Assembly: GCF_000003855.2 (NCBI RefSeq)
Contig: NW_003101635.1
Span: 1-42,290 of the forward strand
From: Blastomyces gilchristii SLH14081
Lineage: Eukaryota > Ascomycota > Eurotiomycetes > Onygenales > Ajellomycetaceae
DNA length: 42,290 bases
Direction of reading: 5' to 3'
Shown here: one piece after another, positions 1,631 through 31,172 of the stretch
Numbering within the stretch: the first letter of the stretch is position 1
How the letters are laid out: every line of letters starts with the position of its first letter
Translations under genes and position numbers: made by a program
The notes under the pieces: generated by a model
Databases searched by the model: none
What the model saw: only the letters and a program-made list of their open reading frames with translations
Told to the model about the DNA's origin: nothing

Positions 1631-2084
1631 CTCAGTAATATCACAGACAATATTTCAAAGAGAGAAATAGACAGTCAGAATATTGAACAGATACAGAGAA
1701 CAGAGTATTTCTTATTATCAGAAGTAAAAGTGAGATTGAAACTTTTAAATAAAATTTATAAGCAGATAGTGAAAAGTATTTACTGTGTTCAGAAGTAGTA
1801 GATAAAATACTATAATTGTAAACATCTTTCAATAAAGTTCTTAATAGAGAATTAAGTACTACTTTCAGCAAAGAATATCAAGATAATAAGACTGTGTAAG
1901 AAGCTCAGTGAGTGATGACTAGAATCTTTCTTAGTAACAAGAGTAATAAGTAAGCAGATATATAAATTGAAATTATTCATAGAATTGAAATTAATTTATT
2001 TTATTTTTCACATTTTCTATTTAAAGTTCTATAAATAATATCTCAGAGTGAAGTCATCTCAGCTGAATAATATTAAGATAGAGA

Positions 2085-3043: not shown

Positions 3044-3056
3044 AAGTCATTGTTAT
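3044..3056. repeat. LINE target-site duplication, 3'-end copy
   Basis: AAGTCATTGTTAT here is repeated exactly at 6086-6098. The two copies bracket the LINE, as expected for target-primed reverse transcription, where duplications of about 7-20 bp are usual. Confidence 0.85.
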
Positions 3057-3075
3057 TATTATTATTATTATTATT
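3053..3075. repeat. (TTA)n tail of LINE
   Basis: About seven TTA units start inside the target duplication. On the LINE's coding (minus) strand this reads (TAA)n and forms the very 3' end of the element. Several LINE clades, including I-like elements, end in a short-unit repeat instead of poly(A). Confidence 0.75.
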
Positions 3076-6000: not shown

Positions 6001-6085
6001 AGGCCATTCCCAGTCATTTTCATCGATGTAGTTGAGAAGTGATATATTCTCTTCCTCTGAATCTGAATCTGAATCTGGTGAGACC
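3057..6085 (-). mobile_element. Tad1/I-like LINE, 5'-truncated copy 1
   Basis: A 3.03-kb minus-strand non-LTR retrotransposon is bounded by a 13-bp target duplication and a (TTA)n tail. It keeps reverse transcriptase, RNase H and a Cys/His knuckle, but lacks ORF1 and the endonuclease, so it is a 5'-truncated insertion. The 3' untranslated region spans about 3076-3429. A second, plus-strand copy of the same family lies at 35205-42290. Presence of an RNase H domain and the knuckle fits the Tad1/I group of fungi. Confidence 0.88.
3430..6085 (-). pseudogene. LINE ORF2: reverse transcriptase - RNase H - CCHC
   Basis: One reading frame runs from the 5' junction to a TAG at 3430-3432. It is interrupted by stops but by no frameshift that I could find. 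The reverse transcriptase shows AAGPDSI, GVILAKPNR, FIDIKEAFDHV and the catalytic box YVDD (5272-5283). RNase H follows with IYSDDSK, ECEVFDAELF, FSDSQAALK and HGNELADSAAKK, so its catalytic Asp-Glu-Asp-Asp set is visible. Last comes a C-x2-C-x7-H-x4-C knuckle (3625-3674). Most stops are TGA where Trp is expected: 5461, the pair near 4877, 4612, 4150 and others; 5059 is TAA. It is inactive, but only mildly decayed compared with its neighbours. Confidence 0.9.
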
Positions 6086-6098
6086 AAGTCATTGTTAT
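6086..6098. repeat. LINE target-site duplication, 5'-end copy
   Basis: This is an exact repeat of 3044-3056 (AAGTCATTGTTAT). It marks the 5' truncation point of the LINE. Beyond it the sequence changes character and no longer encodes LINE protein. Confidence 0.85.
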
Positions 6099-6184
6099 AA
6101 ATGTAATGAAAATAACAGAAGTAGAAGAAGAAGTGAGTATATAAAATCTTCTTCTTCTTCAGCTGCTTAGTGCAGTGTAGATAA

Positions 6185-6625
6185 GTAGTGATACTAGTCA
6201 GAGACTGCACTGAAGCCTTCTTACAGAGAGAAGACAAAGAAACTGTGAGATTCTGCAGACTCAACTCAGCAGTATTCTGAGCAGGGCTCAGATATATCAT
6301 AGAAGAGGAACTACAGATTGAGCTTCTTGAAGTCACTGTTCCCAGAATCAAGCTCTTCCCAGGGTCCTCTTCAAATGATCACATGAGGTCATATGCCACT
6401 GTGTTGATTGAGAGAGGGGATGGCGTCACAACAGCGGTGGGGGAGGCACAGAAAGAACTGGACACAGATGAACTGACCAGCAGAAGGGATGACATCTCAC
6501 TGCAAGGCACAGCAACAACCACCACGGCCGCAAGAGAAGCAGGAGAAGGAGAAGAAGGAGAAGGTATGACAATGAGAGCAGTGCTCCCGCGGTCTGTCAA
6601 CACTGCTGTCTTCATCTTCAACTGA
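6185..6625 (+). CDS. Unrecognised open frame in a less mutated island
   Basis: One frame stays open from 6185 to a TGA at 6623-6625, broken only by a TGA at 6278-6280 that could be a mutated Trp codon. The downstream part from Met 6383 gives 80 residues, with an acidic Gly/Glu run (REAGEGEEGEGM) and a Thr run. The upstream part contains RFCRLNSAVF and IIEEELQIELLEV. I recognise no family. The opposite strand is also open (6379-6678, Ser/Ala/Val-rich), so the coding strand is uncertain. The region keeps CG and GG dinucleotides and is about half G+C from 6380 to 6660. That suggests single-copy DNA spared by the repeat-directed mutation, possibly a fragment of a host gene. Confidence 0.35.
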
Positions 6626-13439: not shown

Positions 13440-14250
13440 TTTAAACAGTTTATATAAAGATGTTGTGATTTATAATAGATAAAATAGAGACTCTTTTTCT
13501 TAGTCTCTCTATTATATACTCTGTTCACAGAAGCTTATAAAGCTCTCTCTCTCTACTTAGTGATTAGATATGAATCTCTCTATATCTTATTATTATTTCT
13601 CAGTAAATCTATTCTCTGTTATTCTAGTTCTTATAGAGTTAGTCAGTGATTTACTCTTTATAAATCTATGACTTTTATAGTGATCTGTAAGTAGTGAATG
13701 AGAGTCATCAGTTTCTTCAGAGTTAAGAACTTAGAGTCTTACTTAATAAGCTTATTCTATATATATTTATTCAGTCTCTTTATAAATATAATTATTCAGA
13801 TCTTGTTTCAGAGCTCTGTTTTCACAGAATTTAATTCATATTATAATTTTATAAAGCACAGTAAGTAGTCTTTATCAGATTTCTTATCTCTTTTTCTAAT
13901 ATTAATAATTACAGCTCAGATGTTTTCTATTCAGCTTACAGAGTTTCTCAACTTATTCTTTAAATAGATCTTAAGAACAGATTAGTAAGATCTTAAGTAA
14001 TTATTCTCTAGATAATTCAGTCAATTCTTAACTTCAGTGTAGTAAAGATCTATTATTATATAGATAACAGCTTCTTCATCTTTTATATCATATAGCTGAG
14101 CTTGTAAGTCAATTTTAAATACAAACTTATAAAAGCTTTTATAGATTGTGATTCAATAGATAATCTTAAGTAGTTATAGCTTAAGAAAGTTTCTTTTCAG
14201 TTTATAAGTATCTCTGAAGATTATATCTAAGAACTCAGTTTAAGAGTGTC
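13440..14250 (-). pseudogene. gag remnant of element III
   Basis: The minus strand gives a gag-like stretch (QAQLYDIKDEEAVIYI, then YYTEVKN, then LKIYLKNKLRN) similar to the capsid region of gypsy gag, where a conserved Trp and an 'FxxYLxxxF' helix occur. It ends in a decayed CCHC knuckle at about 13490-13444, in which the first two Cys have become Tyr but His and the last Cys remain (YKSQHLYINC). Confidence 0.5.
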
Positions 14251-14746
14251 TACAGACAGTAAGTATTTCTTATAGAAAAACAGCTTAATTCTGTAGATAA
14301 TACTCAAGAATATTCTTCACTGAAATTGATTTATTTATGAATTTAGAGAGTTTCTCTATTACAGATATAGAGAATAATGTTCTGTAAGTAATTAATAAGT
14401 TCTCTGAGACTTCTTCTATAAGAGTTATTCATGATTTAGATAGCTACTTCTGAGTGTCTGCAGTAAGATTTACAAAGATTAAAGTATATAAGTTACTAGT
14501 TCTTTTAGTTATAATAGATAGTTACTGACTGATAGAGCTTGAAATGTAAGAATAAGTGCTTACATATAATTATTCAGATGTTTGCAGCTTAACATAATAT
14601 ATACTATTAACTACTAGAAGTATTCACAGTAGAAAGTGAAAATATAGAAGTGAAATATATAATAGTATTCAAGCTGAGTTATGAATAGTATTCATGAACT
14701 TCAGTCTATATAGTTTTGTGTAGTCAAGGGCTGCTAACTCTATTAA

Positions 14747-14764
14747 TTACGTGAGAGATAGAAA
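14747..14764. repeat. Hairpin repeat copy 2, left piece, with GAAA target duplication
   Basis: TTACGTGAGAGATAGAAA matches the start of the repeat at 7667. The last four bases, GAAA (14761-14764), recur at 31173-31176 as the target duplication of element II. The remainder of this repeat copy is at 31177-31215. Confidence 0.65.
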
Positions 14765-14931
14765 TGTGATTCGGAAGAATGTACGACCGCCTGATAATAA
14801 CACGGCCGCTTCCAAACACGCTTACGAATGTAAAGGGGTCATAGCAGCCACTAATTAATTTAGTATGACATATATAAGAAGCTAGCATACACTTGTAATT
14901 GTATGCTAGCTCAAGCAACCTTTAAATCACA
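14765..14931 (+). repeat. 5' LTR of element II
   Basis: This 167-bp LTR begins TGTGATTC and ends AAATCACA, imperfect TG...CA termini. It ends with a 12-bp perfect stem, AGCTAGCATACA and TGTATGCTAGCT, around an 8-nt loop (about 14880-14911). By hand count it differs from the 3' copy at about 23 positions, nearly all transitions. The internal sequence starts TCTGATAGCATGT, the same as in element I, and is the place to look for a primer-binding site. Confidence 0.92.
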
Positions 14932-15655
14932 TCTGATAGCATGTTTAAAAATCAATGAGAAGTGCAGACTTCTTCAGAGTGTGATAATTTCATCTATGAA
15001 GTAATTTGTAGTTATCATATCAATGTGATTCTAAATGTCTCAAAAGATAGTGTATAAGAAAGCAGTGAGTGAAAGAGTATTCAATTAATACTGTTCTACT
15101 TATTGAGAGAAAACTTCACACTCAGATGAATGTCATGTATGTAAACAGATAAGATGTGAGAAAGAGAATGAAAGCAGTGAATCAGATTCAAAGGCATTCA
15201 CTCTCTACTTAGAGAGATACAAGAGAGGTAGTCACAATCAAAGTTATATAATAATGACAGAAATCATATAATAATATGACAATAGACACTGTATAATCAA
15301 TGAGAAATTACTGAAATAAATACCTTCTCTAGTTAATATGAATAATACCACTCTTCTCTGCTACCTAAACTGAAAGATATACAGAATCTCTCAGAAGGTT
15401 TATTTGAAGTAGTAAGAAAAGCAGTCAAGATTACTGAATTAGAAGCAAAACTCTGTACATATATAAGAATTTTAAACAAGATTGAGATCTTGCATATACA
15501 GTGACAGGTCAAGATAGAAGTCAAATAACAATTAATATTCACTGTGAATCAAGTATTCACTATGAAGATCTTCATTAATACAATCATTATTATTAATAAG
15601 AATAGAGAAAATCAGAACATAGACCTGCAGTAAGAGATTGAATACTTACATAGAT
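14932..15655 (+). pseudogene. Leader and gag N-terminal part of element II
   Basis: This stretch matches, base by base with mutations, the gag start of element I (about 23771-23040 on the minus strand). The coding frame of gag can be followed near 15390-15650 with several stops. It breaks off at 15655 where element I is inserted and resumes at 23951 with no loss apart from the AGAT duplication. Confidence 0.7.
15652..15655. repeat. AGAT target duplication of element I, left
   Basis: AGAT here and at 23947-23950 flanks element I. Rejoining the gag sequence of element II across one copy gives continuous similarity to the uninterrupted gag of element I, which supports the 4-bp duplication. Confidence 0.8.
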
Positions 15656-15830
15656 TGTGATTCAAAGGTTGCTTAAGTCAGCGTATGATTACAGGCGTAC
15701 GCGGGCTTCTTATATATTGTAATATTGTATGCTAAATTAATTAGCGGCTGCTATGGCCTCTTTACACTTATAAGCAAGTTCAGAAGCGGCTGTGTTATTA
15801 TCTGATGATTGTATGTTCTTCTGAATCACA
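15656..15830 (-). repeat. 3' LTR of element I
   Basis: This 175-bp LTR reads TGTGATTCAAAGG...GAATCACA on the plus strand. It differs from its partner at 23772-23946 at about 17 positions by hand count, mostly transitions at CG and GG. Just inside it (15831-15845) the minus strand reads CTGATGAGAGAGGA, a polypurine tract for plus-strand priming. Confidence 0.93.
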
Positions 15831-16357
15831 TCCTCTCTCATCAGATTCAGTCACACTCATGTGATCATGATGTCTACTCTAGCTTCATGTGAATTAGTAT
15901 GCCACTAGTGTTCACAATTATGTGATCTATCTCTGATTTGACTAGTGTTCTGTGTACACTCTTATAAAGAAACTTTCACTATATTACATCTCTTATTCAC
16001 TAACTTTTCTCATTCTTCAATCATCTTCTTCATTATTGTCATCATTGAATATCACTATCTCATACAAGATTTCTATCTCTTCTTCTGTTCAACTCTTTTC
16101 ATCTGTTTATCTATTACATTGTACATGTTTCTGATGATAACCTCTCATTTTCACAATAAGTGTTCTCATAGTGCTCATATCAGGCAGTTTGTTAGCAGTA
16201 AGTGTAATGTGTTGTGAAATGTGATCAGGACTTGTTTATCTTCTAACAATTATCAGAATGTACTATTATGAATGATATATTTTCTTTATCTTCTTATACA
16301 TTCTTAACTATTTTCTTCTCAGTGAGTTTCTGATCATGTTTTCTGACATGATTTTGC

Positions 16358-17862
16358 ATGAACACAGATGCTGATATGTTTGTTTTTATTTATGTAGAAT
16401 CTTTACACATTGACAGATTCATGTCTGCTAATAATAGTGAACTCAATATTGAATCATTGATCAAGAACTTGAAGAACATGATAATGAAGAAATTGTTTAT
16501 ACTATGTGTGACTGAGTCTTCTGTATTTCTCTCTACTCTCTCTGTTTCTTTCTCTGTCACTCTCTCTCAATCTTCTACACCTGCTTCTGTGTCTGGTTCT
16601 CCTGCTCCTGCTATCTCTGTTTTCATGACTCTCACTTCTGCTACTCCTGGTTTTACTGTCTCTGCTTTTGTTATCAGCTCTTCTCATTTCAAGGAGATGT
16701 TGTATAGACTTAATGAACTATGTTTTTCAGTGTGTATGCTCTCACTCTTCTTACTGACTCTCAGAATAATTTATTATATGAAGACTATGTATAATATAAC
16801 TATCTGAAGCTCAGTTACAGATGCTGATTATTATATTCATTTTAAATATTCATGATGAGACAATTGTTCATTTATATCAGAGAATCATCTTTCTTCTCAA
16901 CAGTGTTGAAATTATAAGTCTTTTTCTTTTCATCTTTTCAATTGAATTACTCAGTTCAGAAGTAACTCTTTTTCTATTCTTAGAAAAAATTGTTATAGAT
17001 TTTACTGTGCACAAAGTTGTAATATTCATGAATATCAAGAAACTTTTCATGACTGTTAAATTTAATATTGTGAGTATATCTGCTCTGATGAATATCTTCA
17101 GAATGATCAATCTGTATCAGTCTATTCTTTAGTATTTGTTATCTGACTTTGTGATGCAGATGAAGAATATCTGTGTTTTCAGAAATAAGAACATAGATGT
17201 TATACTCTTTTACATCTGCAGATGTGAGACTTGTACACCTTGTCTGAGATGTTGTTATGAAAATGAGCTGTTTATACACTGTGTTCTGCTTTCTGCATTT
17301 CTCTGTATCTCTCTCTCTCTTTCTGAGAAGCCTCATGTGTGTTGTAATTGCATGTATAACTCTAAGATCAGTGAGTATTTATTCAGTAACTGTTCTCATC
17401 TCTGATTTTGTGATTTTTATATGCTAACAATGATTCTTAGTTACTTCAGTGTCAGAGGCTATTCTAATCAAAGATGATAACACTGCTGAGACTATCTTCT
17501 CTCACTCTTAAGCTTCTTCTGTCACTTTCTCTCTCTTCTCTGTAGAGAAGATTGTGTGCATACTGAATTGTAAGTGTTCAGTGCTGAGTGACTTCTGCTG
17601 TTATTTATCTAATTCTGCATCTCTTTCTTTCATTTCTTCTGTCTCTATCTTTTCTGTCCTGGCTTCTGGTTCTGCAGATTCTGTGCTCTTCTTCAATTTC
17701 TCTACACATATGTGTATACATTTCTATATTGGCATTTCAGTCAATCTTGTGATAAATGACATTAATGTTGTATACAGAGTGGTAGAGGAATCAGAGATAT
17801 GCACAGTGTTATTGTGAGAGTGACTTACAGCTCTTGAATTTCTTATGAATCTCAAGTTTTGA
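16358..17862 (+). CDS. Antisense accessory gene of element I, Cys-rich, spliced
   Basis: This gene lies opposite to gag-pol, between the integrase end and the 3' LTR. Segment A (16358-16807) starts MNTDAD and holds IESLIKNLKNM plus a Ser/Thr/Pro-rich middle. Segment B (16821-17370, one TAG at 17130) contains a Cys cluster, CRCETCTPCLRCC then HVCCNCMYNSK, with CxxC spacings suggestive of metal binding. Segment C (after a 70- or 79-nt intron) contains a Ser-rich part and VINDINVVYRVVEE, and ends at TGA 17860-17862. Segments A and B differ by one frame in both element copies, so a second intron or a frameshift lies near 16807. The copy in element II aligns along the whole length with the same start and stop. 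I do not recognise the protein. Gypsy elements of some plants carry antisense genes, but I know of no named fungal match. Confidence 0.6.
16936..16968. repeat. Short dispersed duplicate within antisense gene
   Basis: TCAATTGAATTACTCAGTTC followed by AGAAGTAACTC nearly matches 18853-18884 (end of integrase) on the same strand. Element II has the integrase copy (about 28050-28082) but lacks this one. A local templated insertion of about 23 bp into the antisense gene of element I is the simplest reading. Confidence 0.55.
17371..17440 (+). other. Spliceosomal intron in antisense gene of element I
   Basis: Donor GTGAGT at 17371, branch-like TGCTAAC at 17422-17428, acceptor TTCTTAG ending 17440 (alternative ACTTCAG ending 17449). 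Either acceptor joins the frames, because they differ by 9 nt. Splicing continues the Cys-rich frame into ...SEA...DDNTAETI. Length and signals are those of a fungal intron. Confidence 0.7.
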
Positions 17863-18439
17863 GATTTTCTTTGTTTTTGATGTTTTTCAGATGATGTGAT
17901 GTTAGAAATAGATTAAATGTATGATATATGAAAATGAATGAAGTATGTATAATAATATTTATCTTTTACAGCTGACTCTTACAGTTGATAATTAATTCAT
18001 TATTTCTTTTCTTTTCTTACACTTTTTCTTTATCTGCTAGTCACTACTCTTACATGACCTCTATATAGTACAGTATTCAGTGACTAGATTCAGCAGCTTT
18101 TATCTTTTATAATTCTATCTCACATATTATACTGTCTCTCTTTGCTTACTCAGATCACTACAGTAAACAGCTCATTGAAACTAACCTCACTCAATCTCTG
18201 AGTATCTTTAGAGGTTGAGATGACTTGGTCTCATGTGTCTGCAGATGTTTCAGATAATTCATTCTCTGTAATCTCTGTGATTGAACTGATGTAAACAGTT
18301 GAATTCAACTCTGAATTTCTTTTTCTTCTGTGATCTGACTCACATACAAGTCTGCTGCTTTGAGACTGCTCTTTACTGCATTGTGTCTACTGTCTGCAGT
18401 GCATTATTGTACAACTGGCTACAGTCTCATCACTTATTG

Positions 18440-19880
18440 AAGTGTGATATTCATCTGATTTCTTCATTACTTCTCATTCTTTTCTTATAATTATAAAAAG
18501 ATTGAAATAAGTGAGATTATCTGATTTGTAAATGTCTATGATTTCTCTTATCTTGTGAGACTTTTCAATTGTAAGCCTCTTCTTTTTCAATGCTGATAAT
18601 AGTGCTGTGAATAATCATAATCTACTCAGGTCTTGTACATTTGCTTCTATAAGTTGTAAATCATTTATTAAGTTGTGTAAGACCTGTCTCTCTGATTCTT
18701 TCAATGTGTACATTTCCAGAGAATGTGATTTGAGTATTTTATATGGCTCAAATCACCTAGGTTGAAACTTCTCAGAACTCTCATTATGTATGAGAACTCA
18801 CATTCTTATCTTGAGACTTGATTTCTTAACTAGTGAGTCTCATATTCTTTTTAATTGAATTGCTCAGTTCAGGAGTAACTCATTAGCTTTTGCATGTGTG
18901 TGGCTGATCTCTTTCAATCTTGGTTCTGTATCTGTGACTGTTGTGTCTGCAACTGCTACTACTGTATCTGCAACTGTTGTTCTCTTTCTTATCTTTTCTG
19001 AAGCATTCTTCAGGATGTGCGGATGCAATTCATACAACAGGTAGAATGATGAATACTTGAAGACTGCATGCTGTTGAATTCATGTGGCCAGTAGTGCCTG
19101 TCTGAGATATTCATCTCATAGTCTTGTAGGCTTGTTCACTAGATATTTTATCAGCATATTGTTCAAGATTTCATTCAAGTGTTTCATCTTTCTGTTCATT
19201 CACAGATGATATGACATTGTTCTACAATATCTTGTCTATAACTGATTTATGAAATGTCTCATCACTTCTTCTATGAGATTCACATCATTATCAGTTAGAA
19301 TCTCATGTGGCATTTCATAGTTGACATAGATCTCATTATATAGAAACTTTGTCATCATCTTCTCTGTTACCTCTGAAACTGCTTTTGTGACTGGCCAGTC
19401 AGTAGTGTAATTAATAGCAGTGATTATTCATTGATTTTCATTTGATGTCTGTGACAATATATCTATGAGGTTCACTCTTCATTATTTAAACAGTTGTATT
19501 ATACACTTCATCTGATGTTATACTTTCTCATGTTCTAACTCTTTCTTAGATTCTGTTGTAATCTGACAATTCAGGCACTTGTAAGTGTATATCTGAATGT
19601 TCTTGACCATGCTTGGCCAGTATACTCTTGGTTTGAGTATGCTCATGAGTTCAGGGTTTTCTAAGTGACTGAATTCTTTGTATATGTGAGTCATTAACTC
19701 ACATTTAAATGAAGATTCTAGATAGGAAGCTTCTGTGTATTCTAGATTACAGTAAAGCACAATGTCATTTTTCAATTTTCTCAGCTTGAAGTTTGAAAGT
19801 ATCTCTTCTACTACTCTTACAAGATACTTATTATCTGATATCTTGTCATTCTTCAAGTGAGAGATCATAGTGTTCACTCA
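18440..19880 (-). pseudogene. Integrase of element I with GPY/F module
   Basis: The open stretch 19877-19518 carries the H2C2 zinc finger (HIYKEFSH ... YKCLNCQ). Past a stop the core shows DILSQTSNENQ, ITAINYTTDWP and ILTDND, then MNRKMKHLNE, the equivalent of 'TNGKVERLNG'. In the last the catalytic Glu position appears as Lys. The C-terminal part contains FEPYKILKSH, YTLKE and VLHNLIN (about 18790-18690), the GPY/F module of chromoviral integrases with Gly changed to Glu. No chromodomain is evident after it. Pol ends tail-to-tail with the antisense gene. Confidence 0.85.
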
Positions 19881-19959
19881 TTCTGATTCCTTGCATTCTC
19901 TCAGTGTGTTTAATATGAATGTCTCTTATACCTGGTTCACAGAATCCTCACTCATGAAA

Positions 19960-21160
19960 TCAGGTCTGTGACTGATTATATCAGATATCACAGTGTCTGA
20001 ACTCTTTCAGTATTTAATATGAAGATTGTACACTTGAAACTCTGAGATTCAACATACTAAGTGTTTGAAAGGTTTTATTATTGATTATAGATAGATGAGA
20101 CTTTTATAATCTGTGATCACTGTTATTGTATATCTGTTGTTGATATATCTATTTCATAATATCAGTATATGCTTAATCACTAGCAATTTCTTTTCATACA
20201 CTGAGTAATTGAGCTCAGTGTCTGATAGTTTTCTATCATTGTATATCACTGAGTGCAGCTTGCTATTCTTATTCATCTGTAGAAGAGTGCCTCTGATAGC
20301 TTATTCAGATGCATCTGTCTCAATGTAGAAAGATTTATCATGATCTGATTGAATAAGCACTGAGAATGTTGTTACACATTCTCTCAGTGTGAGAAAAGAC
20401 TCTTCACACACAGCATTTCAGATAATTGAATGAAACTTCTTCTTTCACAGATTTATATCTATTTCTCTTAAGAGATCTGAGAGTGATGCAGATATTCATA
20501 TAAAATCCTTGATGAATCTGCAGTAATATAAGATCAATTCAAGAAACTGTTGTATACAATGTACATTTCTCAGCTGCAGTCAATTCACTATGACATTCAA
20601 TTTCTTCAGAATGAAGTGTATACAGTCATCACTCACTACATATTCTACAAATTTCAATGCTTTCATTTCAAACACACACTTGATTAGTTTGATGTAGAGC
20701 TTATACTCTGTCAGAGTTGTAAGCACTTCATTGAAATACTTCAGATATTCATTATATGAGTTTGAAAAGACTAGAATGTTATTAAGATATATGAGATATG
20801 AGGTTTCATTCTGTTTATAAAGAATTATATTCATCATTGTTTGAAAGATGACAGATGCATTTATCAGACTAAATAGTATTATCAGGAATTCAAACTTCTT
20901 TCATTGTGTATTAAATGTGGTTCATGAAACTGACAATTTATCTACACAGATCTGTCAGTATTCTGAGAGAAGATTGATCTTTGATAGATATCAGGTGTTT
21001 TCAACTGTATTCAACTGTTGTTGAATTCATGACAGTGAATATTCATTCTTGATTATAAGCTTATTAAGTGCTCAATAATTGATACACATCTGTCACTCTT
21101 CACCTGCCTTTTTCACAAATAGAACTGGAAAGTCTCATGTGCTTGATAAGAGTTATATAA
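19960..21160 (-). pseudogene. Reverse transcriptase and RNase H of element I
   Basis: The minus strand shows PVLFVKKAGEE, MCINYRALNKL, QICVDKLSVS, FQTMMN, then the catalytic box YLNN (20778-20789) followed by ILVFSNSYNEYLKY. The 85-residue open stretch 20837-20580 covers the palm and thumb (LTEYKLYIKLIKCVFEMK). RNase H follows: FYIETDASE-stop-AI, KLSDTELNYSVYEKKLL, VITDYKSLIYL, DIISHRPDFM. Trp codons are TGA and both Asp of YLDD are Asn, so polymerisation is dead. RNase H keeps its first Asp. Confidence 0.88.
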
Positions 21161-21699
21161 GATTATGTTCTAGAAGGTCTGTGATCTGATACTTCTGTTC
21201 TTCAAGATGTGTTTGTGACAGAGAATATGTATTCTGATTGACTGGTTTTGTGTCCCTTATATCAATCTCATATACAAATCCTTGTTTCAGTAGCAATTTT
21301 GATGAAAGATCTGTTCAGAAGATCTTCTCATGCTTCTTCAGAAGCTTCTTCATATGCTTATTCTCTTGTATATTCTTTATCTTGGTTTTCTCTGCTTCTG
21401 AGTCCTGTATGACATACAGAATGCTTTCAGATGAGGTCTTGTGAATCATTCTCTTTATTTATTAATATGTAAGCAGATTTAACTCTTCTATATCAGAGAT
21501 GTGAAATGTCCTTCTCATATCAGTTGATAGAATTGTATGAACCATTTTCTTTCTATTGATCAACTGCATATGACATGTACATTATTGAATCTGTGAATTG
21601 AACCTTTGAAATTAATTGAGTCTGAGAATAAGGTTGTATTTCATGTTCTGCAGCTCTCACACTCAAATATAGCAAGATTATTCTCTGAAGTACAAGGAA

Positions 21700-21880
21700 A
21701 CTCTTACTCTTACAGGTGATATCAAATATTAATTATCAGATAATCTTATGTGTCAGAGATTCTTCATCTGATAAATCTCTTTCAATCTTCAGATCATATA
21801 ATCATTAATATATTATGTAGAAGCTTCTGTGTCTGCTAACACTTTTACAGTCATCTCTTGATTCTTACTCAAGTGTCTCT
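21700..21880 (-). pseudogene. Retropepsin active-site region of element I
   Basis: The minus strand reads VLADTEAST (active-site triplet at 21816-21833), the retroviral-type aspartic protease motif 'DTGAS' with Gly (GGA) changed to Glu (GAA). It sits between gag and reverse transcriptase. A stop follows immediately. The domain would cleave the Gag-Pol polyprotein. Confidence 0.7.
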
Positions 21881-21899
21881 TATACATTAATATTTCAGG

Positions 21900-23690
21900 T
21901 CTTAAGATATTGAGATAAGTGTTCACTTCATTCTTCTCATCTGCATCTCATTTGAGAGTCTGCTTCTTCTTTGTATTTGCAGGATTCAGGGAATTATCTA
22001 ATACAGGCATCTCTTTCACTTTGAAGACTTTTCATAGAATATCAGTGAGTGTCTTCAAGCTTACTGATTCTTCTAGTTTTTTAACTTTCTTACTTCTCTT
22101 GACTGTGTACACTGAGTGCAATCTTTTACATCATGATTTTAATATCTGCAGTTAAAGCAAGCTCAATGCTTATAATATCAAGATTTTCACTCAGAGAATC
22201 CCTTTTTCAGAGAATTCAGTGCTTTAGTGATAACATTCAGATCTAGATTCATCATATCTGAGTGTGTGACTTGTGTTATAGAAGTCTGATTATTTGTTCT
22301 CTGCTGAGACATACTCAATTGCAGTATTTTCTATTGCAATTGACTTGCTTATTCTTATATAATAAGAATATTGTATACTTTCTTCACTGTGTCTGACTGT
22401 GAGATTAAGCATTTTCATTTCACTCTCAACTCAGATGTAAGATCATGAATGAAGATCTATAAATAGAAAGATGTTGAAAGCTCTTTATTCAATACAAGAT
22501 AGTATAAGCTGAAGTGTGTGAAATATGATATAAGATTACTTACTTATCTACACTCAGTGAAGTGTTTGTAACACTTGTCTTATATATTTACTTTCTCAAA
22601 GTTATGTAAGATTCATTTGAAAAACTCATTTCATATTTATAAGAATAAATATTACTCTGAGTCTGTGAGATTCATCTTTTCATCAGTTATTTATAATGAC
22701 TTTGCTTTTCTATATAGAAATGTGACAGATCTTAAGACTTGTTGAAATTCTGTTAACTGTTTGTCTGTGAGTTCATATTCAATCTGATAATATGATTGCA
22801 TCTGACTTAGTCAGCTGATTGCAGCATTATTTTTTCAGTTATCATTGAAGCTTAGTGACTTCAGCAGATTTTCTCACTTGATATATTTTATACTCAGATT
22901 CTCATTCTGTGCAGTGATCTCTGATAATGTGTATACTTCTGAAGAGAGTGTGAATAATTGTGATGAAATCTTCAGATTCAGTGTAGTTATCTGTCTGTGT
23001 AATCATTCAATCTTCTGCTGCAGGCCTAAGATCTGGTTTTCTCTATTCTTATTGATGATGATAATTGCGTCAGCAAAGCTCTTCATAGTGAATACATTAT
23101 TCACAGTGAATGTCAATTGTTGTTTGACTTCTGTCTCAGCCTGCCACTGTGTATACAAGGCCTTGATCTCATTTAGAATCCTTGTATGTGTATGAAGCTT
23201 TGATTTCAGTTCAGTGATTTCAGCTGCTTTTCTTACTGCTTTGAGTAAACTCTCTGAGAGGTTCTGCATATCTTTCAGTTCAGGTAGCAGACAAAGGTGT
23301 TGTTTATATCAGTTAGAGAAGATATTCATTTCAGTGATTTCTTGTTAATTGTATAATGTCTATTGTTATATTACTGTGTTATTATATCAGTATATTATTC
23401 TATCACTATATCATTATATTGCTATATCATTATATGATTTCTGTTATCATTGTATGACTTCAGTGATGATCATCTCTTCTTTTATCTCATTGAATGAAGA
23501 GCAGTCTTCTTTGAATCTGGTTCATTGCTCTCATCTCTTTTCTCACATCTCATCTGTTTGCATATGTGGTATTCGCCTGAGTGTGGAGTTTTCTCTCAAT
23601 AAGTGAAGCAGTATCAATTGAATGCTCTTTCACTCACTGCTCTTTATATGCTATCTTTTTGAGGTGTTCTAGAACCACACTGACATGATA
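21900..23690 (-). pseudogene. gag of element I with coiled coil and CCHC knuckle
   Basis: The best-preserved stretch is 23269-23003: 88 residues, MQNLSESLLKAVRK...ILGLQQKIE, helical and Leu/Lys/Glu-rich, probably a coiled coil. Downstream the frame passes several stops and ends in a zinc knuckle near 22105-22165, CFNCRY-stop-NHDVKDC (C-x2-C-x4-H-x4-C). The copy in element II has CAA (Gln) at the stop position, so TAA arose by C to T there. Gag forms the virus-like particle and binds the RNA. Confidence 0.72.
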
Positions 23691-23771
23691 ACTATGAATC
23701 ACTTTGTAGATAGAATTATCATGCTCTGGAGAAGCCTGCGCTTCTCACCGGTTTTTAGACATGCTATCAGA

Positions 23772-23946
23772 TGTGATTCAAAGGTTGCTGAAGCCAGTGT
23801 ATGATTACAGGCGTATGCTGGCTTCTTATATATTGTAATATTGTATGCTAAATTAATTAGCGGCCGCTATGGCCCCTTTACACTTGTAAGCAAGTTCAGA
23901 AGCGGCCGCGTTATTATCCGACAGTCGTATGTTCTTCCGAACCACA
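23772..23946 (-). repeat. 5' LTR of element I
   Basis: This 175-bp LTR is the least mutated of the four in the I/II family. On the minus strand it starts TGTGGTTCGGAAG and ends GAATCACA. It keeps two GCGGCCGC motifs. Near its 3' end is an imperfect stem, AGCCAGCATACG with CATACACTGGCT. It is followed by AGAT (23947-23950), the right target duplication. A separate GC-richer patch (CTGCGCTTCTCACCGG) lies just inside the element at about 23736-23751. Confidence 0.93.
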
Positions 23947-23950
23947 AGAT

Positions 23951-25030
23951 AGATAATTACACTAAATCTAAAGATTTTATTATAATCATTTACAATCTCT
24001 TCAGAAGTATACATATTATCTGAGATCACTGTACATGATCAGAATTTAAGTATAAAATATATTAAGTCAGAAGATCTGCTGAAGTTATCAAGCTTTAATA
24101 ACAACTAAAAAAATGATACTGTAATTAGCTGACTAAGTCAAATATAATTATATTATTGAATTGAGTGTGAACTTATGAGCAGACAGTTAATGAAATTTTA
24201 ACAAGTCTTAAGATCTGTCACATTTCTATATAGAAAAGCAAAGTTATTATAAATGACTGATGAAAAAATGAATCTCACAGATCTGAAGTAATATTCATTT
24301 TTATGAATATGAAATAAGTTTTTCAAATGAATCTTGCATAACTTTAAGAAAGTGTATATATAAGATATGTATTATAAACACTTCACTGAGTGTAGATAAG
24401 TAAGTAATCTTACATCATACTTTACACACTTCAGTTTACACTATCTTATATTGAATAAAGAGCTTTTAACATCTTTCTGTTTACAGATCTTCATTCACAG
24501 TCTTACATCTAAGTTAAGAGTGAAATGAAAATGCTTAATCTTATAATCAGATATGATGAAAGAAGTATATAATATTCTCATTATATAAGAACAAGTAAGC
24601 TGGCTATAACAGAAAATACTGTAATCAAGTATACTTTAGCAGAGAACAGATAATCAGACTTCAATAATACAAGTCATTCACTCAGATATAATGAATCTAG
24701 ATTTGAATGCTATTGCTAAAGTACTGAATCTCTCAAAAAAGAGATTCTTTGAGTGAAAATCTTGATATTATAAGCATCAAGCTTGCTTCAACTGTGATCA
24801 TCAAAATCATGATATAAAGAATTACACATAGTATATACAGTCAAGAGAAGTAACAGAGTTAAAAAACTAGCAGAATTAGTGAGCTTGAAGACTCTTACAG
24901 ATATTCTATAAAAAGTCTTCAAAGTGAAAGTGATAATCATGTTAGATGACTCTCTGAATTCTGTAAATATTAAGAGAAAGCAGGCTTCTAAATGAGATAA
25001 AGATAAGAATGAAGTAGTAAACACTCATCT
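23951..25030 (+). pseudogene. gag C-terminal part of element II
   Basis: gag resumes after element I at GATAATTACAC, in register with the uninterrupted copy. The CCHC knuckle at about 24783-24825 reads ACFNCDHQNHDIKNY, with the last Cys changed to Tyr. Several stops lie between. Together with 14932-15655 it makes one gag. Confidence 0.7.
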
Positions 25031-25039
25031 CAATATCTT

Positions 25040-25160
25040 AGAGTCTGAAATATTAATATATAGAGAGTACTTGAGTAAGAATCAAGAGATAACTATAAAA
25101 GTATTAGTAAATATAGAAGCTTCTATATAATATATTAATAATTATATAATCTGAAGACTG
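25040..25160 (+). pseudogene. Retropepsin active-site region of element II
   Basis: VNIEAS (25110-25127 codes NIEASI) stands where element I has DTEAST and where 'DTGAS' is expected, so the catalytic Asp is Asn and Gly is Glu. It is preceded by LSKNQEITIKV, matching LSKNQEMTVKV of element I. Confidence 0.65.
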
Positions 25161-25789
25161 AAAGAAATCTGCTGAGTGAAGAATTTTCAATGTATAAGAT
25201 TGTCTGATAACTGATATTTAGTATTATCTATAAGAGTAAGAGTTCTCTTGTACTTCAGAGAATGATCTTGCTATATTTGAGTATAAGAGCTGCAGAACAT
25301 AAAATATAATCTTATTCTCAGACTTAATTAATTTCAAAGATTCAATCTGCAGATTCAATAATGTACATGTCATATACAGTTAATTAATAGAAAGAAAACA
25401 GTTTATACAATTCTATTAACTAATATAAGAAGGACATTTTATATCTCTAGTATAGAAGAGTTAAATCTGCTTACACATTAATAAGCAAAGAGAACAATTT
25501 ACAAGACCTTATCTGAAAGTATTCTGTATATTATACAGGATCTGAAAGCAGAGAAAATCAAGATAAAGAATATACAGAAGAATAAGTGTATGAAGAAACT
25601 TCTGAAGAAGTATAAAAAGATCTTTTAAACAGATCTTTCACTGAAATTGCTGCTGAAACAAGGATTTATACATGAGATTAATACAGAGAATGTGAAATCA
25701 GTCAATCAAAATGTGTACTCTCTGTCACAGACATATCTTGAAGAATAGAAGTATCAGATCACAGATCTTCTAGAATATAATCTTATATA

Positions 25790-27000
25790 ATTCTTATCAA
25801 GTATGTGAGACTTCTCAGTTCTATTTATGAAAAAGATGAGTGAGAAGTGACAGATATGTATTAATTCTTAAGCACTCAATAAGCTTACAATCAAGAATAA
25901 ATACTCATTATCATGAATTTAACAACAGTTGAATGCAGTCAGAAACACTTGATATTTATCAAAGATTCATCTTCTCTCAGAATACTGACAGATCTGTGTA
26001 GACAAACTGTCAGTACTATGAACCATGTTTAATATATAATGAAAAAAGTTCAAATTTCTGATAATATTATTTAATTTAATAAATGTATCTGCTATCTTTC
26101 AAATAATAATGAATATAATTCTTTATAAACAGAATAAAATCTTATATCTTATATATATAAATGATATTCTAGTCTTCTCAAACTCATATAATAAATATCT
26201 GAAGTATCTCAATGAAGTGCTTATAACTCTGACAGAGTATAAGCTTTATATTAAATCAATAAAGTGTGTATTTGAAACAGAAGAGTTGAAGTTTATAGAA
26301 TATGTTCTAAGTAATGACTATATACATCTCATTTCAGAGAAATTCAATATCATAGTAAATTGACTGTAGCTGAGAAATATTTATTATATACAATAGTTTC
26401 TTAAGTTGATCTCATATTACTGCAGATTTATTAAGAATTTCATATAAATAACTGTATCACTCTCAGATCTCTTAGAAGAAATAGATATAAATCTGTGAAA
26501 GAATAAGTTTCATTCAATCATCTGCAATGTCATATGTAAAGAGGTCTTTCTCACACTAAGAGAATATGTGATAACATTCTCAGTACTTATTTAATCAGGT
26601 TACAATAAATCTTTCTACATTGAGATAGATACATTTAAATAAGCTATCAGAGATGCTCTTACCAAAGAGAAAAACCCCAGCGGCATGTTATTAAGTACTT
26701 GATAAAACCATCAAATGCTGAGCTCAATTACTCAGTGTATGAAAAGAAATTACTAGTAATGAAGTACATACTGATGTTGTGAGATAGATATATTGATAAC
26801 AGATATATAATAACAGTGATCATGAATCATGAAAGTCTTATCTATCTATAATTAATTACAAAACTCTTCAAACACTTAGTACATTGAATCTCAGAGTTTT
26901 AAGTATACAATCTTCATATTAAATACTGAAAGAGATCAGACACTGTGATATCTGATGTAATCAGTCACAGATCTGATTTCATGAGTGAGAGTTCTGTGAA
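25790..27000 (+). pseudogene. Reverse transcriptase and RNase H of element II
   Basis: This stretch is homologous to 21160-19960 of element I on the other strand. The open stretch 26109-26363 holds the catalytic box as YIND (26154-26165), followed by ILVFSNSYNKYLKYLNEVL and LTEYKLYIKSIKCVFE. RNase H begins near 26612 (FYIEIDTFK, where element I has FYIETDASE) and continues through ELNYSVYEKKLL. A segment at about 26659-26712, which contains CCCC and CGGC, is less mutated and does not align cleanly to element I. Dead by stops and active-site change. Confidence 0.82.
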
Positions 27001-27039
27001 CTAGATATAAGAGAAGTTTGTATTAAACATGCTGAGAGA

Positions 27040-28330
27040 ATGCAAGAAATTAGAATAAGTAAATGTAATAATCTCTTACTTAAAGAATGTTAAGATATTA
27101 AATAATAAGCATCTTATAAAAGTAGTAGAAGAGATACTTCTAAACTTCAAGCTGAGAAAATTAAAAAATGATGTTGTGCTATACTGTGATCTAGAATATG
27201 TGAAAGCTCTCTATTTAAAACATTTATTTAGATATGATTTGATGACTTATATGCACAAGGAATTCAGTCATCTTGAAAGTTCTGAACTCATGAGTATACT
27301 CAAATTAAGAGTGTACTGACTAAGCATGACTGAGAACATTCAGATATACACTCACAAGTATCTGAATTATCAGGTTGTAAAAGAATCTAAGAAAGAATTA
27401 GAATATGAGAATGTATAATATCAGATAAAATATATGATATAATTATTTCAACAATGAGAGATGAACCTCATAGACATATTACTGTGAACATTAAATGAAA
27501 ATTATTGAATAATCACTGCTATTGACTACACTACTAACTGATCAGTTATAAAAGAAGTTTCAGAAATGATAGAGAAGATGATGATGAAGTTTCTATATAA
27601 TAAGATTTATATCAACTATGAAATACTGTGTGAGATTCTAACTAAGAACAGTGTGAATCTCATAGAAGAAATAATGAGGCATTTCATAAGCCAGTTATAG
27701 ATAAGATATTATAGAACAACATTATATCATCTACAAATAAATAGAAAGATAAAACACTTAAATGAAATCTTAAGTAATATACTGATAAAATATCTAGTGA
27801 GTAAGTTCATAAGACTATGAAATGAATATCTGAGACAGATGTTGTTAGTTATATGAATTCAGTAGTATACAGTCTTTAAGTATTCATCATTCTATCTATT
27901 ATATGAATTGCATCCGCGCATCTCAGAGAATGCTTCACAAAAGATAAGAGAGAAAACAGTAATTACAGATACAACAGTAGTGAACACAGCAGTTATAAAC
28001 ACAGAATCAAGATTAAAAGAGATCAGTCATACACATATAAAAGCTAACAAGTTACTTCTAAACTGAGCAATTCAATTAAAAAGAATATAAGACTCACTGA
28101 TTAAGAAATCAAGTCTCAAGATAAAAATGTAAATTCTTGAATATAATAAGAGTTCTGAGAAGTTTCAATCTAGATAATTTAAGCTCTATTCAATACTTAA
28201 ATCACAATATCTGGGAACATATGCATTGAAAAAATTAGAGAGATAAGTCTTACATAACTTAATAAATAATTCATATCTTATAAAGATGAAGATGTAAGAT
28301 CTGAGTAAATTATAATTATTCACAGCACTA
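27040..28330 (+). pseudogene. Integrase of element II
   Basis: The zinc-finger region at 27245-27380 reads MHKEFSHLESSELMSIL and then YLNYQ, with both Cys of the CxxC changed to Tyr. A decayed core follows, and a GPY/F-like module near 28150-28260 (FKLYSILKSQYLGTYALKK). It matches element I throughout and ends tail-to-tail with the antisense gene. Confidence 0.75.
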
Positions 28331-29081
28331 TTATCAGCATTGAAAACCAAGAGACTTATAATTAAAAAGTCTCACAAAGTAAGAGAAATTATAGATGCTT
28401 ATAAATCAGATAATGTCACTTATTCTGATCTTTCTATAATTATAAGAAAAGAATGAGAAGTAATGAAGAAATCAGATAAATATCACATTTTAATAAGTGA
28501 TAAGACTATAATCAGTTGTATAATAACACACTGCAGACAGTGAGTATAACACAGTAAAGAGTGATCTCAAAGCAGTAGACTTACACATGAGTCAGATTAC
28601 AGAAGAAAAAGAAATTCAGAGTTGAATTCAACTATTTACATCAGTTTAATCACAAAGACAACAGAGAATGAAGTATCTGAAATATTCACAGATATATGAG
28701 ATTAAGCTATCTTAATCTCTGAGAACACTCAGAGATTGAGTGAGATTAGTTTTAATAAGTTATTCGCTGTAGTGATCTGAGCAGGTAAAGAGAGACAGTA
28801 TAATACATGAGATAAAATCACAGAAAGTGAAAACTGTCAAATCTAGTCACTGAACACTGTATTATATAGAGATCATATAACAGTAATGACTAGCAGACAA
28901 AGAAAAAGCATAAGACAAGAAAAGAGAATGACTCAAGAGATAATAAATTAATTATTAACTGTAAGAATCAGTTATAAAAAGACAAATGTTATTATACATA
29001 TCTTATCTCTTTTCATACATCACATATTTAATCTATTTTCAACATCACATCATCTGAAAAACATTAAAAAGAAAGGACATC

Positions 29082-30560
29082 TTAAAACTTGACATCTGTA
29101 AGAAATTTAAGAGCTGTAAGCTGCTTCTGTAACAATGCTGTACATATTTCTAATTTCTCTATCACTCTGTATACGACATTAATATCATTTATCACAAGAT
29201 TGACTAAAATGCCAATATAGAAATGTGTACATATATATGTAGAAAAATTGAAGAAGAGCATAGAAGCTGCAGAATCAGAAGTCAGAGCAAAGAGAATAGA
29301 GATAGAAGAAATTAAAGAAGAAGAAAATACAGAACTGAATAAATAATAGTAAGAGTCACTCAGAACTGAACACTTATAATTCAGTATACACATAATCTTT
29401 TCTGCAGAGAAGAGAGAGAAAATGATAGAAGAAGCTTGAAAGTGAAAGAGAATAGTCTTAGCAGTATTATCATCTTCAGAAATTGAAATAATCTCTGACA
29501 CTGAAGTAACTAAGAATCATTAGCATATGAAAATATAGAAAACAGAAATAATAATTATCAAATCAACACTCACTGATCTTAGAATTGTACATGTAATTAC
29601 AACATACATGAGACTTCTCAGAAAGAGAGAGAGAGACACAGAGAAATGCAGAGAGAAGAATATAACATATAAATAGCTTATTCTCATAATAATATCTTAG
29701 ATAAGATGTATAAGTCTCATATCTACAGATGTAAAAGAGTATAACATCTGTATTCTTATTCTCAAAAACACAGATATTCTTCATCTGCATCATGAAGTCA
29801 GATGATAAATGTCAGAGAATAGACTGATATAAGTTGATTATTCTAAAGATATTCATTGAAGTGAATATAGTTATAATATTGAATTTAACAGTTGTAAAAT
29901 GTTTCTTGATATCTGTAGATACTATGACTTCATGCATGATAAAACTCATAACAATTTTCCCTAGAAAAACTAGTGTTAGAAGAGAAGATGAAAAAGAAAA
30001 GACTTATAGTCTTAACACTGTTGAGAAAGAGAATAATTCTCTGATATAAATGCATAATTATCTCATTATAAATACTTAAAATAAACATAATAATCAGTGT
30101 CTGTGACTGAGCTTCAGATAGTTATATTATACACAGTCTTCATACAATAAATTATTCTAGAGATTGATAAAAAGAGCAGAAGTGTACATACTGAGAAACA
30201 TGATTCACTAAGTCTATATAACATCTTCTTGAAACAAGAAGAGCTGATAACAGCAGCAGAAGTAACAGCAGAGATAACAGAGGCAGAAGTAGCAGAAGCA
30301 GAGATAGCAGAAGTGAGAGAATCAGATACAGAAGTAAGTGTAGAAGATTGAAAGAGAGTGACAGAGAAAGAAACAGAGAGAACAGAGAAGAACATAAGAG
30401 ACTCAGTTATACATAATATAAACAATTTCTTCATTGTCATGTTCTTCAAGTTCTTGATTAACAATTCAACATTGAGTTCATTATCATTGATAAATATGAA
30501 TCTGTCAATATATGAAGATTTTACATGAATAAAAACAGATATATCAGCATCTGTGTTCAT
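29082..30560 (-). CDS. Antisense accessory gene of element II, Cys-rich, spliced
   Basis: This is the counterpart of 16358-17862. Segment A (30560-30114, 148 residues) starts MNTDADISVF and aligns end to end with the 149-residue copy in element I. Segment B includes MQMKNICVFENKNTDVILFY and the Cys-rich region, where several Cys have become Tyr. Segment C follows a 64- or 73-nt intron and contains VINDINVVYRVIEK, ending KF-stop at 29082-29084. About 23 bp in segment B present in element I are missing here and change the frame. The protein is not recognised. Shared start, stop, intron and frame relations in two diverged copies argue that this was a real gene before mutation. Confidence 0.6.
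29510..29573 (-). other. Spliceosomal intron in antisense gene of element II
   Basis: On the minus strand the donor GTGAGT starts at 29573, followed by a TGCTAAT branch-like site and acceptor TTCTTAG ending at 29510 (alternative ACTTCAG ending at 29501). It occupies the same codon phase as the intron of element I. It is 64 nt against 70 nt, and its interior has diverged more than its signals. Confidence 0.7.
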
Positions 30561-30988
30561 GTAAAATTATGCTAGAAAACATGATTAGATGCTCACTGAG
30601 AAGAAAAGAGTTAAGAATATATAAGAAGAAGAAGATATATTATTCATGATAAGATGTTCTGATAATTATTAGAAGAGAAACAAGTTCCGATCACATTTTA
30701 TAATATATTACACTTACTGCTAATAAACTGCCTGATATGAGCACTATGATAATACTTGTTATGAGAACAGAGAGTCATCATCAGAAACATATACAATGTA
30801 ATAGATGAACAGATGAGAAAGTACTTTATAAAGAAGAAGATGCAGAGATCTTGTACAAGATGATGATGTTTAATGATGATAATGATGAGAATGATGATTG
30901 AAGAATGAAAATGTTAGTGAATAAGTGGTGTAAAATAGTGGAAGCTTCTCTGAGGAGCGGCTTATGTCATGGTCATGTGAGTGTGACT

Positions 30989-31006
30989 GGATTTGGTGGG
31001 GGAGAA
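30989..31006 (+). other. Polypurine tract of element II
   Basis: GGATTTGGTGGGGGAGAA lies directly before the 3' LTR. The equivalent tract in element I reads CTGATGAGAGAGGA, which looks like the same tract with G to A changes at GG. Confidence 0.75.
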
Positions 31007-31172
31007 TGTGGTTCGAAAGAACATATGACCGCCGGATAATAACGCGGCCGCTTCTGAACATGCTTATGAATGTAAAGAGGTCATAGCGGCCACTAATTAA
31101 TTTAGTATAACATATATAAGAAGCCGCGTACGCCTGTAATCGTACGCTGGCTCAAGCAACCTTTGAATCACA
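31007..31172 (+). repeat. 3' LTR of element II
   Basis: This 166-bp LTR begins TGTGGTTC and ends GAATCACA. It has a stem, AGCCGCGTACG against CGTACGCTGGCT (about 31123-31153). It is followed by GAAA (31173-31176), the right target duplication. It keeps more CG than the 5' copy. Confidence 0.93.

What the first reader, a model, noticed from the sequence alone, without database searches (positions are those of the whole stretch)
16358..17862. Antisense, intron-containing Cys-rich gene carried by a gypsy element, first copy
Seen: a gene-like region opposite to gag-pol between the integrase and 3' LTR of element I. It has a start (MNTDAD), a Ser/Thr-rich part, a Cys cluster (CRCETCTPCLRCC, HVCCNCMYNSK), a short intron, and a stop after KF. 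The same structure is in element II. Known: antisense accessory genes occur in some plant gypsy lineages. I know of none described with this content in fungal gypsy elements. Inference: the element family gained a host-derived or novel regulator, perhaps metal- or nucleic acid-binding, transcribed from or near the 3' LTR.
Basis: partly seen in the sequence, partly recalled or inferred. Interest (0 to 1): 0.88.

Follow-up and report, generated by a model that had tools for sequence, protein, structure and literature searches.

The report
Antisense host-like gene inside fungal retrotransposon
A jumping gene present in hundreds of mostly decayed copies in the fungus Blastomyces carries, on its opposite strand, an intron-containing gene homologous to one of the fungus's own genes; the gene was likely captured from the host and is predicted to make a DNA- or RNA-binding helper protein for the jumping gene.

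Summary
The window lies in a 74.8-Mb Blastomyces gilchristii-like assembly. Element I (15656-23946) is a gypsy insertion with a 4-bp target duplication. Between integrase and 3' LTR, on the opposite strand, lies a four-exon gene of 467 codons (16137-17862). In 64 aligned copies, 61 keep all exons in frame; exon indels are multiples of three in 24 of 26 events against 21 of 79 outside exons (p 2e-9); shared transversions favour third codon positions (9/5/21). The frame was thus under selection before RIP-like mutation broke most copies. The 'MNTDAD' start is intronic, there are three introns, and 24 of 35 apparent Cys codons look like mutated Arg. What remains is a six-cysteine DUF3716 domain (C-x2-C-x9-C-x19-C-x2-C-x8-C), matching a host gene found in seven related species (profile probability 97%, E 1e-10) with an intron of the same phase within one codon. 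Antisense orientation would let a captured gene keep introns through an RNA cycle. DUF3716 ORFs also sit in two helicase-bearing repeat families. Closest known kinds: plant Retand antisense ORFs, HTLV HBZ; no fungal precedent in the searches named. The role in the element is inferred.

The parts
15656..15830 (-). 3' LTR of element I (TG...CA ends, 175 bp)
   Evidence: 90% identical direct repeat of 23772-23946
23772..23946 (-). 5' LTR of element I
15652..15655 (.). target duplication AGAT, left copy (right copy 23947-23950)
   Evidence: sequence read directly
20583..20900 (-). reverse transcriptase piece (RVT_1)
   Evidence: 34.4 bits, cut-off 29.6
20157..20300 (-). RNase H piece (RT_RNaseH_2)
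   Evidence: 32.5 bits, cut-off 29.8
19521..19877 (-). integrase zinc-binding piece (Integrase_H2C2)
   Evidence: 34 bits, cut-off 25.5
16137..16197 (+). antisense gene, exon 1 (start codon ATG in 47, ATA in 15 of 64 copies)
   Evidence: matches exon 1 of annotated P0001
   Evidence: GTAAGT in 62 of 64, TAG in 61 of 64
16398..16913 (+). exon 2 (Ser/Thr/Pro-rich part, then a part without known domain)
16914..16983 (+). intron 2 (55 nt in 47 of 64 copies)
   Evidence: RTAAGT in 61 of 64 (first base G in 23, A in 41 of all 64), TAG in 61 of 64; host intron of the same phase within one codon
16984..17385 (+). exon 3, with the DUF3716 six-cysteine domain (about 17241-17378)
17386..17440 (+). intron 3
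   Evidence: (G/A)TAA(C/T)T in 62 of 64, TAG in 61 of 64, YTRAY 17 nt before the acceptor in 63 of 64
17441..17862 (+). exon 4, ending with a predicted C-terminal helix and stop 17860-17862
30718..30778 (-). element II, exon 1
   Evidence: mapped through the alignment
30008..30520 (-). element II, exon 2
29559..29960 (-). element II, exon 3
29082..29509 (-). element II, exon 4

Best explanation
A Ty3/Gypsy retrotransposon family of Blastomyces carries, between integrase and 3' LTR and on the opposite strand, a four-exon gene for a DUF3716 protein homologous to a conserved host gene; it was likely captured from the host with its introns and is predicted to act as a nucleic-acid-binding regulator of the element. 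Shown by the calls: position, strand, exon structure as read from copies, coding constraint before decay, homology to the host gene, a six-cysteine domain with host spacing, and one intron shared in phase and, within a codon, in place. Inferred: capture as DNA or unspliced RNA, after which antisense orientation protected the introns, because splicing of the sense genomic RNA would not remove them. Inferred: expression from a promoter near the 3' LTR, convergent with gag-pol. Inferred: a zinc-binding six-Cys module plus a C-terminal helix that binds DNA or RNA and tunes LTR transcription or counters host silencing, as proposed for plant Retand TRP28 proteins and, for HTLV HBZ, known from general knowledge.
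For: Constraint: 61 of 64 copies keep all exons in frame; exon indels 24 of 26 multiples of three against 21 of 79 in introns and flanks (p 2.3e-9), shared ones 13 of 13 against 9 of 36; in the 35 copies left after dropping 29 taken from a protein-search list, 19 of 20 against 13 of 56. Shared transversions by codon position 9/5/21, p 0.0026, and rarer in exons, 35 of 1401 against 43 of 875 sites, p 0.003. Six codons of this frame are stops in at least 90% of copies, one being the terminal stop, against 16 and 25 in the other spliced frames and 19, 23, 20 in the sense frames; four of the six show traces of a mutated sense codon, and annotated relatives have a residue at the fifth. Homology: P0003 over the DUF3716 cut-off (30.3 against 22 bits); host profile against P0003/P0001 probability 97, E 1e-10, 245 columns. 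Cys spacing 2-9-19-2-8 against host 2-9-14/15-2-8. Family trait: first-look candidates 766 for integrase and 805, 762, 758 for three gene pieces; 86 of 149 integrase places have a listed gene match 1.5-4.2 kb past them on the opposite strand, 0 of 149 on the same strand, 0 of 149 on the other side.
Against: No transcript or protein evidence. Function is inferred: DUF3716 has no known function, the draft exon alignment A1 found no solved relative, and both AlphaFold models are poor (mean pLDDT 44 and 42) except the C-terminal helix. The damaged copies alone (draft A1) gave only a weak profile match to the host family (probability 11); the strong match rests on two annotated relatives. 63 of 149 integrase places had no match in the gene lists; the lists are capped, so absence and low rank cannot be told apart. 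18 of the 26 exon indel events lie in the Ser/Thr-rich stretch 16430-16670; outside it 6 of 8 are multiples of three. The lower transversion density of exons rests on the introns (27 of 310); flanks (16 of 565) are like exons. The N-terminal ~195 residues have no host counterpart. The donor chosen for intron 3 differs from the annotated models.
Confidence: 0.62

Rival explanations
1. The gene was acquired from another mobile element rather than directly from the host chromosome; DUF3716 genes circulate among unrelated elements.
For: The same genome has DUF3716 ORFs in two helicase-bearing repeat families: L092-type (19 of 40 matches cover at least 1300 of 1401 nt; DUF3716 antisense to the helicase ORF) and L086-type (four matches cover at least 1457 of 1500 nt, itself included). 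In the unrooted tree the element branch is long and not inside the Blastomyces host clade. Rotifer LTR elements share extra ORFs between element types (PMC5408684, passages).
Against: Colinear match to the host gene including its C-terminal part, and an intron of the same phase within one codon. The helicase-family proteins were looked at by Pfam domain only, so the comparison is one-sided.
Confidence: 0.25
2. Passenger: a host gene fragment carried along with no use to the element.
For: Captured host sequences are commonly passengers (general knowledge); no function is proven.
Against: Frame, splice sites and third-position excess were kept while the family spread.
Confidence: 0.12
3. Reverse direction: the host gene is a domesticated copy of the element's gene.
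For: Domestication of element genes is known in fungi (general knowledge); the tree is unrooted.
Against: Host-type proteins were found in Blastomyces species, Emmonsia crescens, Histoplasma, two Emergomyces and Paracoccidioides, while element-type proteins were found only in Blastomyces (searches limited to proteins sharing words with the query).
Confidence: 0.08
4. No gene: open frames by chance on a T-rich strand with few mutable codons.
For: The strand is T-rich and RIP-like change makes few stops on it; single frames stay open in most listed copies (129 of 150 by my count).
Against: Indel, transversion, splice-site, stop and homology results.
Confidence: 0.02

Closest known systems
Plant Retand/Grande/RIRE2 gypsy elements with antisense ORFs (TRP28, PF04195) between pol and 3' LTR
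   Same: Same slot and strand, family-wide, proposed DNA-binding regulator (PMC11963269, abstract and passages)
   Different: Unrelated protein: no PF04195 match. Plant, not fungal. The word intron does not occur in that paper's main text, whereas this gene has three introns and a host homologue
HTLV-1 HBZ, a spliced antisense gene from the 3' LTR
   Same: Antisense, spliced, near the 3' LTR (titles and abstract openings in the listing: PMC1459196, PMC10186651)
   Different: bZIP protein (recalled) of a retrovirus; no bZIP match here; promoter use not shown here
Host DUF3716 gene of Blastomyces and relatives (L079, P0020, P0023, P0030 and others)
   Same: DUF3716 six-Cys domain, C-terminal Y-x-I-P-x2-L and helix, intron phases
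   Different: 22-30% identity in the alignments; host protein lacks the ~195-residue N-terminal part; found here as one GC-rich locus (L079), with L082 a possible second gene
Rotifer LTR elements with captured ORF3s (PMC5408684)
   Same: Family-specific extra ORFs
   Different: Other proteins (DEDDy, GDSL); antisense placement not stated in the passages seen

Membership tests
Ty3/Gypsy LTR retrotransposon | LTRs with TG/CA ends and a short target duplication | tested here: met
   175-bp LTRs, AGAT duplication of 4 bp
Ty3/Gypsy LTR retrotransposon | Order RT - RNase H - integrase | tested here: met
   Pfam matches at 20900-20583, 20300-20157, 19877-19521 on the minus strand; the likely integrase core piece 19239-19427 had no match
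DUF3716 (PF12511) | Score over the curated cut-off | tested here: met
   Annotated relatives 23.0 and 30.3 bits against 22; of 8 mutated copies 5 match at E up to 0.1, best 3.7e-5. The window's own exon-3 piece alone did not match
DUF3716 (PF12511) | Six Cys with host spacing | tested here: met
   2-9-19-2-8 against 2-9-14/15-2-8; the middle loop is four or five longer
Retand-type antisense ORF | Antisense ORF between pol and 3' LTR | tested here: met
Retand-type antisense ORF | TRP28 domain PF04195 | tested here: not met
   no match; it may work like Retand's, it is not a member
HBZ-type antisense regulator | bZIP domain | tested here: not met
   no match
HBZ-type antisense regulator | Spliced antisense transcript from the 3' LTR | not testable with these tools
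   no RNA data
Zn(II)2Cys6 zinc cluster | Pfam Zn_clus profile; CX2CX6CX5-12CX2CX6-8C (spacing recalled) | tested here: not met
   no match; same six-Cys order but loops of 9 and 14-19

The most novel reading that the evidence does not exclude
DUF3716 is a recurrent accessory module of fungal mobile elements: a host zinc-binding-type gene family taken up repeatedly, often antisense, by unrelated elements (a gypsy family and two helicase-bearing repeat families in one genome), where it acts as a transcription or anti-silencing factor that helped the gypsy family fill much of the Blastomyces genome before RIP ended it.
Probability: 0.3. Interest if true: 0.85.

Novelty: new variant of a known kind. 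Interest (0 to 1): 0.68.

Why it matters
It extends the antisense accessory-gene architecture of plant Retand elements and retroviruses to a fungal gypsy family, with an identifiable host relative and preserved intron structure, and so suggests why a captured gene should be antisense: only there would its introns survive the RNA cycle. It offers a testable candidate for how a gypsy family spread in the Blastomyces genome, gives DUF3716 a first context, and shows that several annotated Blastomyces 'hypothetical proteins' are element genes.

Tried and rejected
Intron at 16730-16814, donors at 17070 and 17371, and a TATA box near 15965: rejected, since the decisive letters there vary as C/T or G/A products among copies. 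MNTDAD as start: rejected (intron 1). Stops shared by nearly all copies inside the frame taken as real stops: rejected, since copies hold mixed stop types or traces of sense codons, and annotated relatives have a residue there. Structure search: not run, both models too poor. Solved-structure search with draft A1: no match. DUF3716 in print: 0 papers; PF12511: one paper with one passing mention (PMC5225507, passage). Fungal precedent: searches and passages of PMC3248453, PMC4427930, PMC4595289, PMC11540331 gave none; most subscription papers are not in that library.

Full report
WHERE IT IS. The window is the start of contig C48 of a 74,819,186-base assembly in 75 contigs. The protein P0001, named by its source as a hypothetical protein (BDBG_17024) of Blastomyces gilchristii SLH14081, comes from a contig of 3,179,325 bases, the length of C7 here, and locus L085 on C7 encodes it at 93-100% identity. 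The organism is therefore B. gilchristii or its like; no tool names it directly.

THE ELEMENTS. Element I runs from 15656 to 23946 on the minus strand: 175-bp LTRs with TG/CA ends, 90% identical, an AGAT target duplication, and Pfam matches in the order reverse transcriptase, RNase H, integrase zinc domain. Element II is in the opposite orientation and is split by element I: its 5' part is 14765-15655 and the rest begins at 23947 (self-comparison; inference from the alignment blocks). The two are about 81% identical.

DECAY. Copies differ almost only by C-T and G-A changes; minority cells that are transversions number 331 against 9,269 transitions in 42 copies (summed from its table). Where both neighbouring columns vary, CG is present in 43 cells against TG 2,439, CA 2,206, TA 1,530. 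This is RIP-like decay with a CpG preference (name inferred from the pattern; one Blastomyces paper says LTR elements are susceptible to RIP, PMC11540331, passage). A synonymous-excess test on transitions would therefore mislead. I used indels and transversions, which RIP does not make.

GENE STRUCTURE. I aligned 64 unique copies (78 loci, 65 unique, one dropped). Three introns have conserved signals: GTAAGT in 62 of 64 and TAG in 61 for intron 1; RTAAGT in 61 and TAG in 61 for intron 2, its first base being A in 41 of 64; (G/A)TAA(C/T)T in 62 and TAG in 61 for intron 3, with a branch-like YTRAY 17 nt before the acceptor in 63. Joined exons give 467 codons including the stop. Exon 1 as read here matches the first 20 residues of the annotated P0001 on L085 (452-511). 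The annotated models P0001 and P0003 lack the second half of the Cys domain; the donor at 17386 keeps it, and the host orthologues have it. That choice is an inference.

CONSTRAINT. 61 of 64 copies keep all four exons in frame; each in-frame copy has 5 to 12 stops, mean 8.2. Distinct indel events: 24 of 26 multiples of three in exons, 21 of 79 in introns and flanks, Fisher p 2.3e-9; those shared by at least two copies 13 of 13 and 9 of 36, p 1.9e-6. In the 35 copies left without the protein-search loci: 19 of 20 and 13 of 56, p 1.4e-8. Against this, 18 of the 26 exon events lie in the low-complexity stretch 16430-16670; outside it 6 of 8 are multiples of three. Transversion columns shared by at least two copies: codon positions 9, 5, 21, p 0.0026; in the subset 16 of 25 in position three, p 0.004. 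Columns cluster by descent, so these p-values are rough. Their density is 35 of 1401 exon sites against 43 of 875 others, p 0.003; flanks alone (16 of 565) are no denser than exons, so the density result rests on the introns (27 of 310). Codons that are stops in at least 90% of copies: 6 in this frame (one is the terminal stop), 16 and 25 in the other two spliced frames, 19, 23 and 20 in the sense frames. These results are hard to obtain unless the antisense frame was translated and selected while the family was spreading.

HOW MANY COPIES CARRY IT. The first look found 766 integrase candidates and 805, 762 and 758 candidates for three gene pieces. Three gene lists, each capped at 150 rows, hold 334 distinct places; 86 of 149 integrase places have one of them 1.5-4.2 kb past the integrase on the opposite strand, 0 on the same strand and 0 on the other side. 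That is a lower bound; the other 63 are undecided. Similar candidate counts suggest, but do not show, that nearly every element has the gene. Among the 64 aligned copies the 30 whose fetched stretch and alignment reach the LTR run on through the gene to 18100; the others mostly were fetched too short to tell.

WHAT IT ENCODES. The search with A1 gave 18 proteins at E 0.01, each from Blastomyces, among the 7,989 candidates scored. P0003 passes the DUF3716 cut-off (30.3 against 22 bits). In the same genome the best DUF3716 match is a GC-rich locus, L079 (56.6 bits; GC 0.49), with orthologues in Blastomyces silverae, B. parvus, Emmonsia crescens, Histoplasma, two Emergomyces and Paracoccidioides (39-67% identical to it). 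Profile comparison of these seven with P0003 and P0001 gives probability 97, E 1e-10, over 245 columns including the C-terminal end; with the draft alignment of mutated copies only 11. Codons that mix C with Y (mutated Cys) and codons that mix C with H (mutated Arg) can be told apart: 11 Cys-type and 24 Arg-type among 35. Cys-type codons in exon 3 give C-x2-C-x9-C-x19-C-x2-C-x8-C (one extra Cys follows the fourth), the host C-x2-C-x9-C-x14/15-C-x2-C-x8-C (for P0034 the pattern search ran on to a later Cys).

INTRONS SHARED WITH THE HOST. The host gene has an intron of phase 1 just before its V-x-E-E-V motif and another of phase 1 after the Cys domain (read from L079, and P0020). Element intron 2 is phase 1 and, in the alignment, lies one codon from the first; element intron 3 is phase 1 and follows the Cys domain, about nine codons nearer to it. 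Intron 1 and the N-terminal ~195 residues have no host counterpart. In the tree of ten sequences host and element are separated by long branches (1.89 and 2.71), and the element pair is not inside the Blastomyces host clade; so capture was old, or evolution fast, or the source was a paralogue. The tree is unrooted.

HOW IT LIKELY WORKS. Inference: a chromosomal gene entered the element as DNA or unspliced RNA. In sense orientation its introns would be spliced out of the genomic RNA; in antisense they would be invisible to splicing and be copied. The gene would be transcribed from near the 3' LTR towards pol. The six-Cys domain is predicted to bind zinc and, by analogy with other fungal six-Cys modules (recalled), DNA or RNA; the C-terminal helix, the only confident part of either model, may pair proteins. 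The most likely use is regulation of LTR transcription or defence against silencing. No call tests this.

OTHER CARRIERS. DUF3716 ORFs also occur in two repeat families with a helicase C-terminal ORF: L092-type, antisense to it, with 19 of 40 matches covering at least 1300 of 1401 nt, and L086-type, same strand, with four near-full matches. The helicase matches are below the Pfam cut-offs, and calling them Helitron or Pif1-like is from memory. This is why the novel case is kept bold.

KNOWN WORK. Plant Retand elements are the nearest parallel (PMC11963269, abstract and passages). Two Blastomyces genome papers describe the gypsy expansion and give no hit for 'antisense' in their main text (PMC4595289, PMC11540331; passages only). 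Gypsy elements of Paracoccidioides are 5.4-5.7 kb (PMC4427930, passages), against 8.3 kb here.

Noticed in passing
14765-15655 and 23947-31172: Element I is nested in element II in opposite orientation, with AGAT on both sides.
   Followed up: partly
L092:564-827 (+) and 1489-1776 (-); relatives L088, L093: Repeat family with a helicase-like ORF and an antisense DUF3716 ORF; 19 of 40 genome matches cover at least 1300 of 1401 nt.
   Followed up: partly
L086:1477-1989 (-) and 2668-2973 (-): Second helicase-bearing repeat with a DUF3716 ORF, on the same strand; four near-full matches, itself included.
   Followed up: partly
L082:1489-1758 (-): GC-rich locus (0.47) with a DUF3716 ORF (36.1 bits), perhaps a second host gene.
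   Followed up: no
L084, L090, L095, L097; window 14076-14765 and 3056-3235: Another repeated family with DUF3716 matches broken by stops; its DNA matches window sequence beside element II (88%) and at 3056-3235 (98%).
   Followed up: no
P0001-P0019: Annotated Blastomyces hypothetical proteins match this antisense gene, so gene catalogues appear to count element genes as host genes.
   Followed up: partly
4692-5793 and 35261-36362: Inverted pair (84%) with reverse-transcriptase-like ORFs on the minus strand near 5059-6378; looks like a Tad-type LINE (recalled).
   Followed up: no
whole window: CpG is scarce (observed/expected 0.146) and copies differ by transitions: RIP-like decay with CpG preference.
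   Followed up: partly
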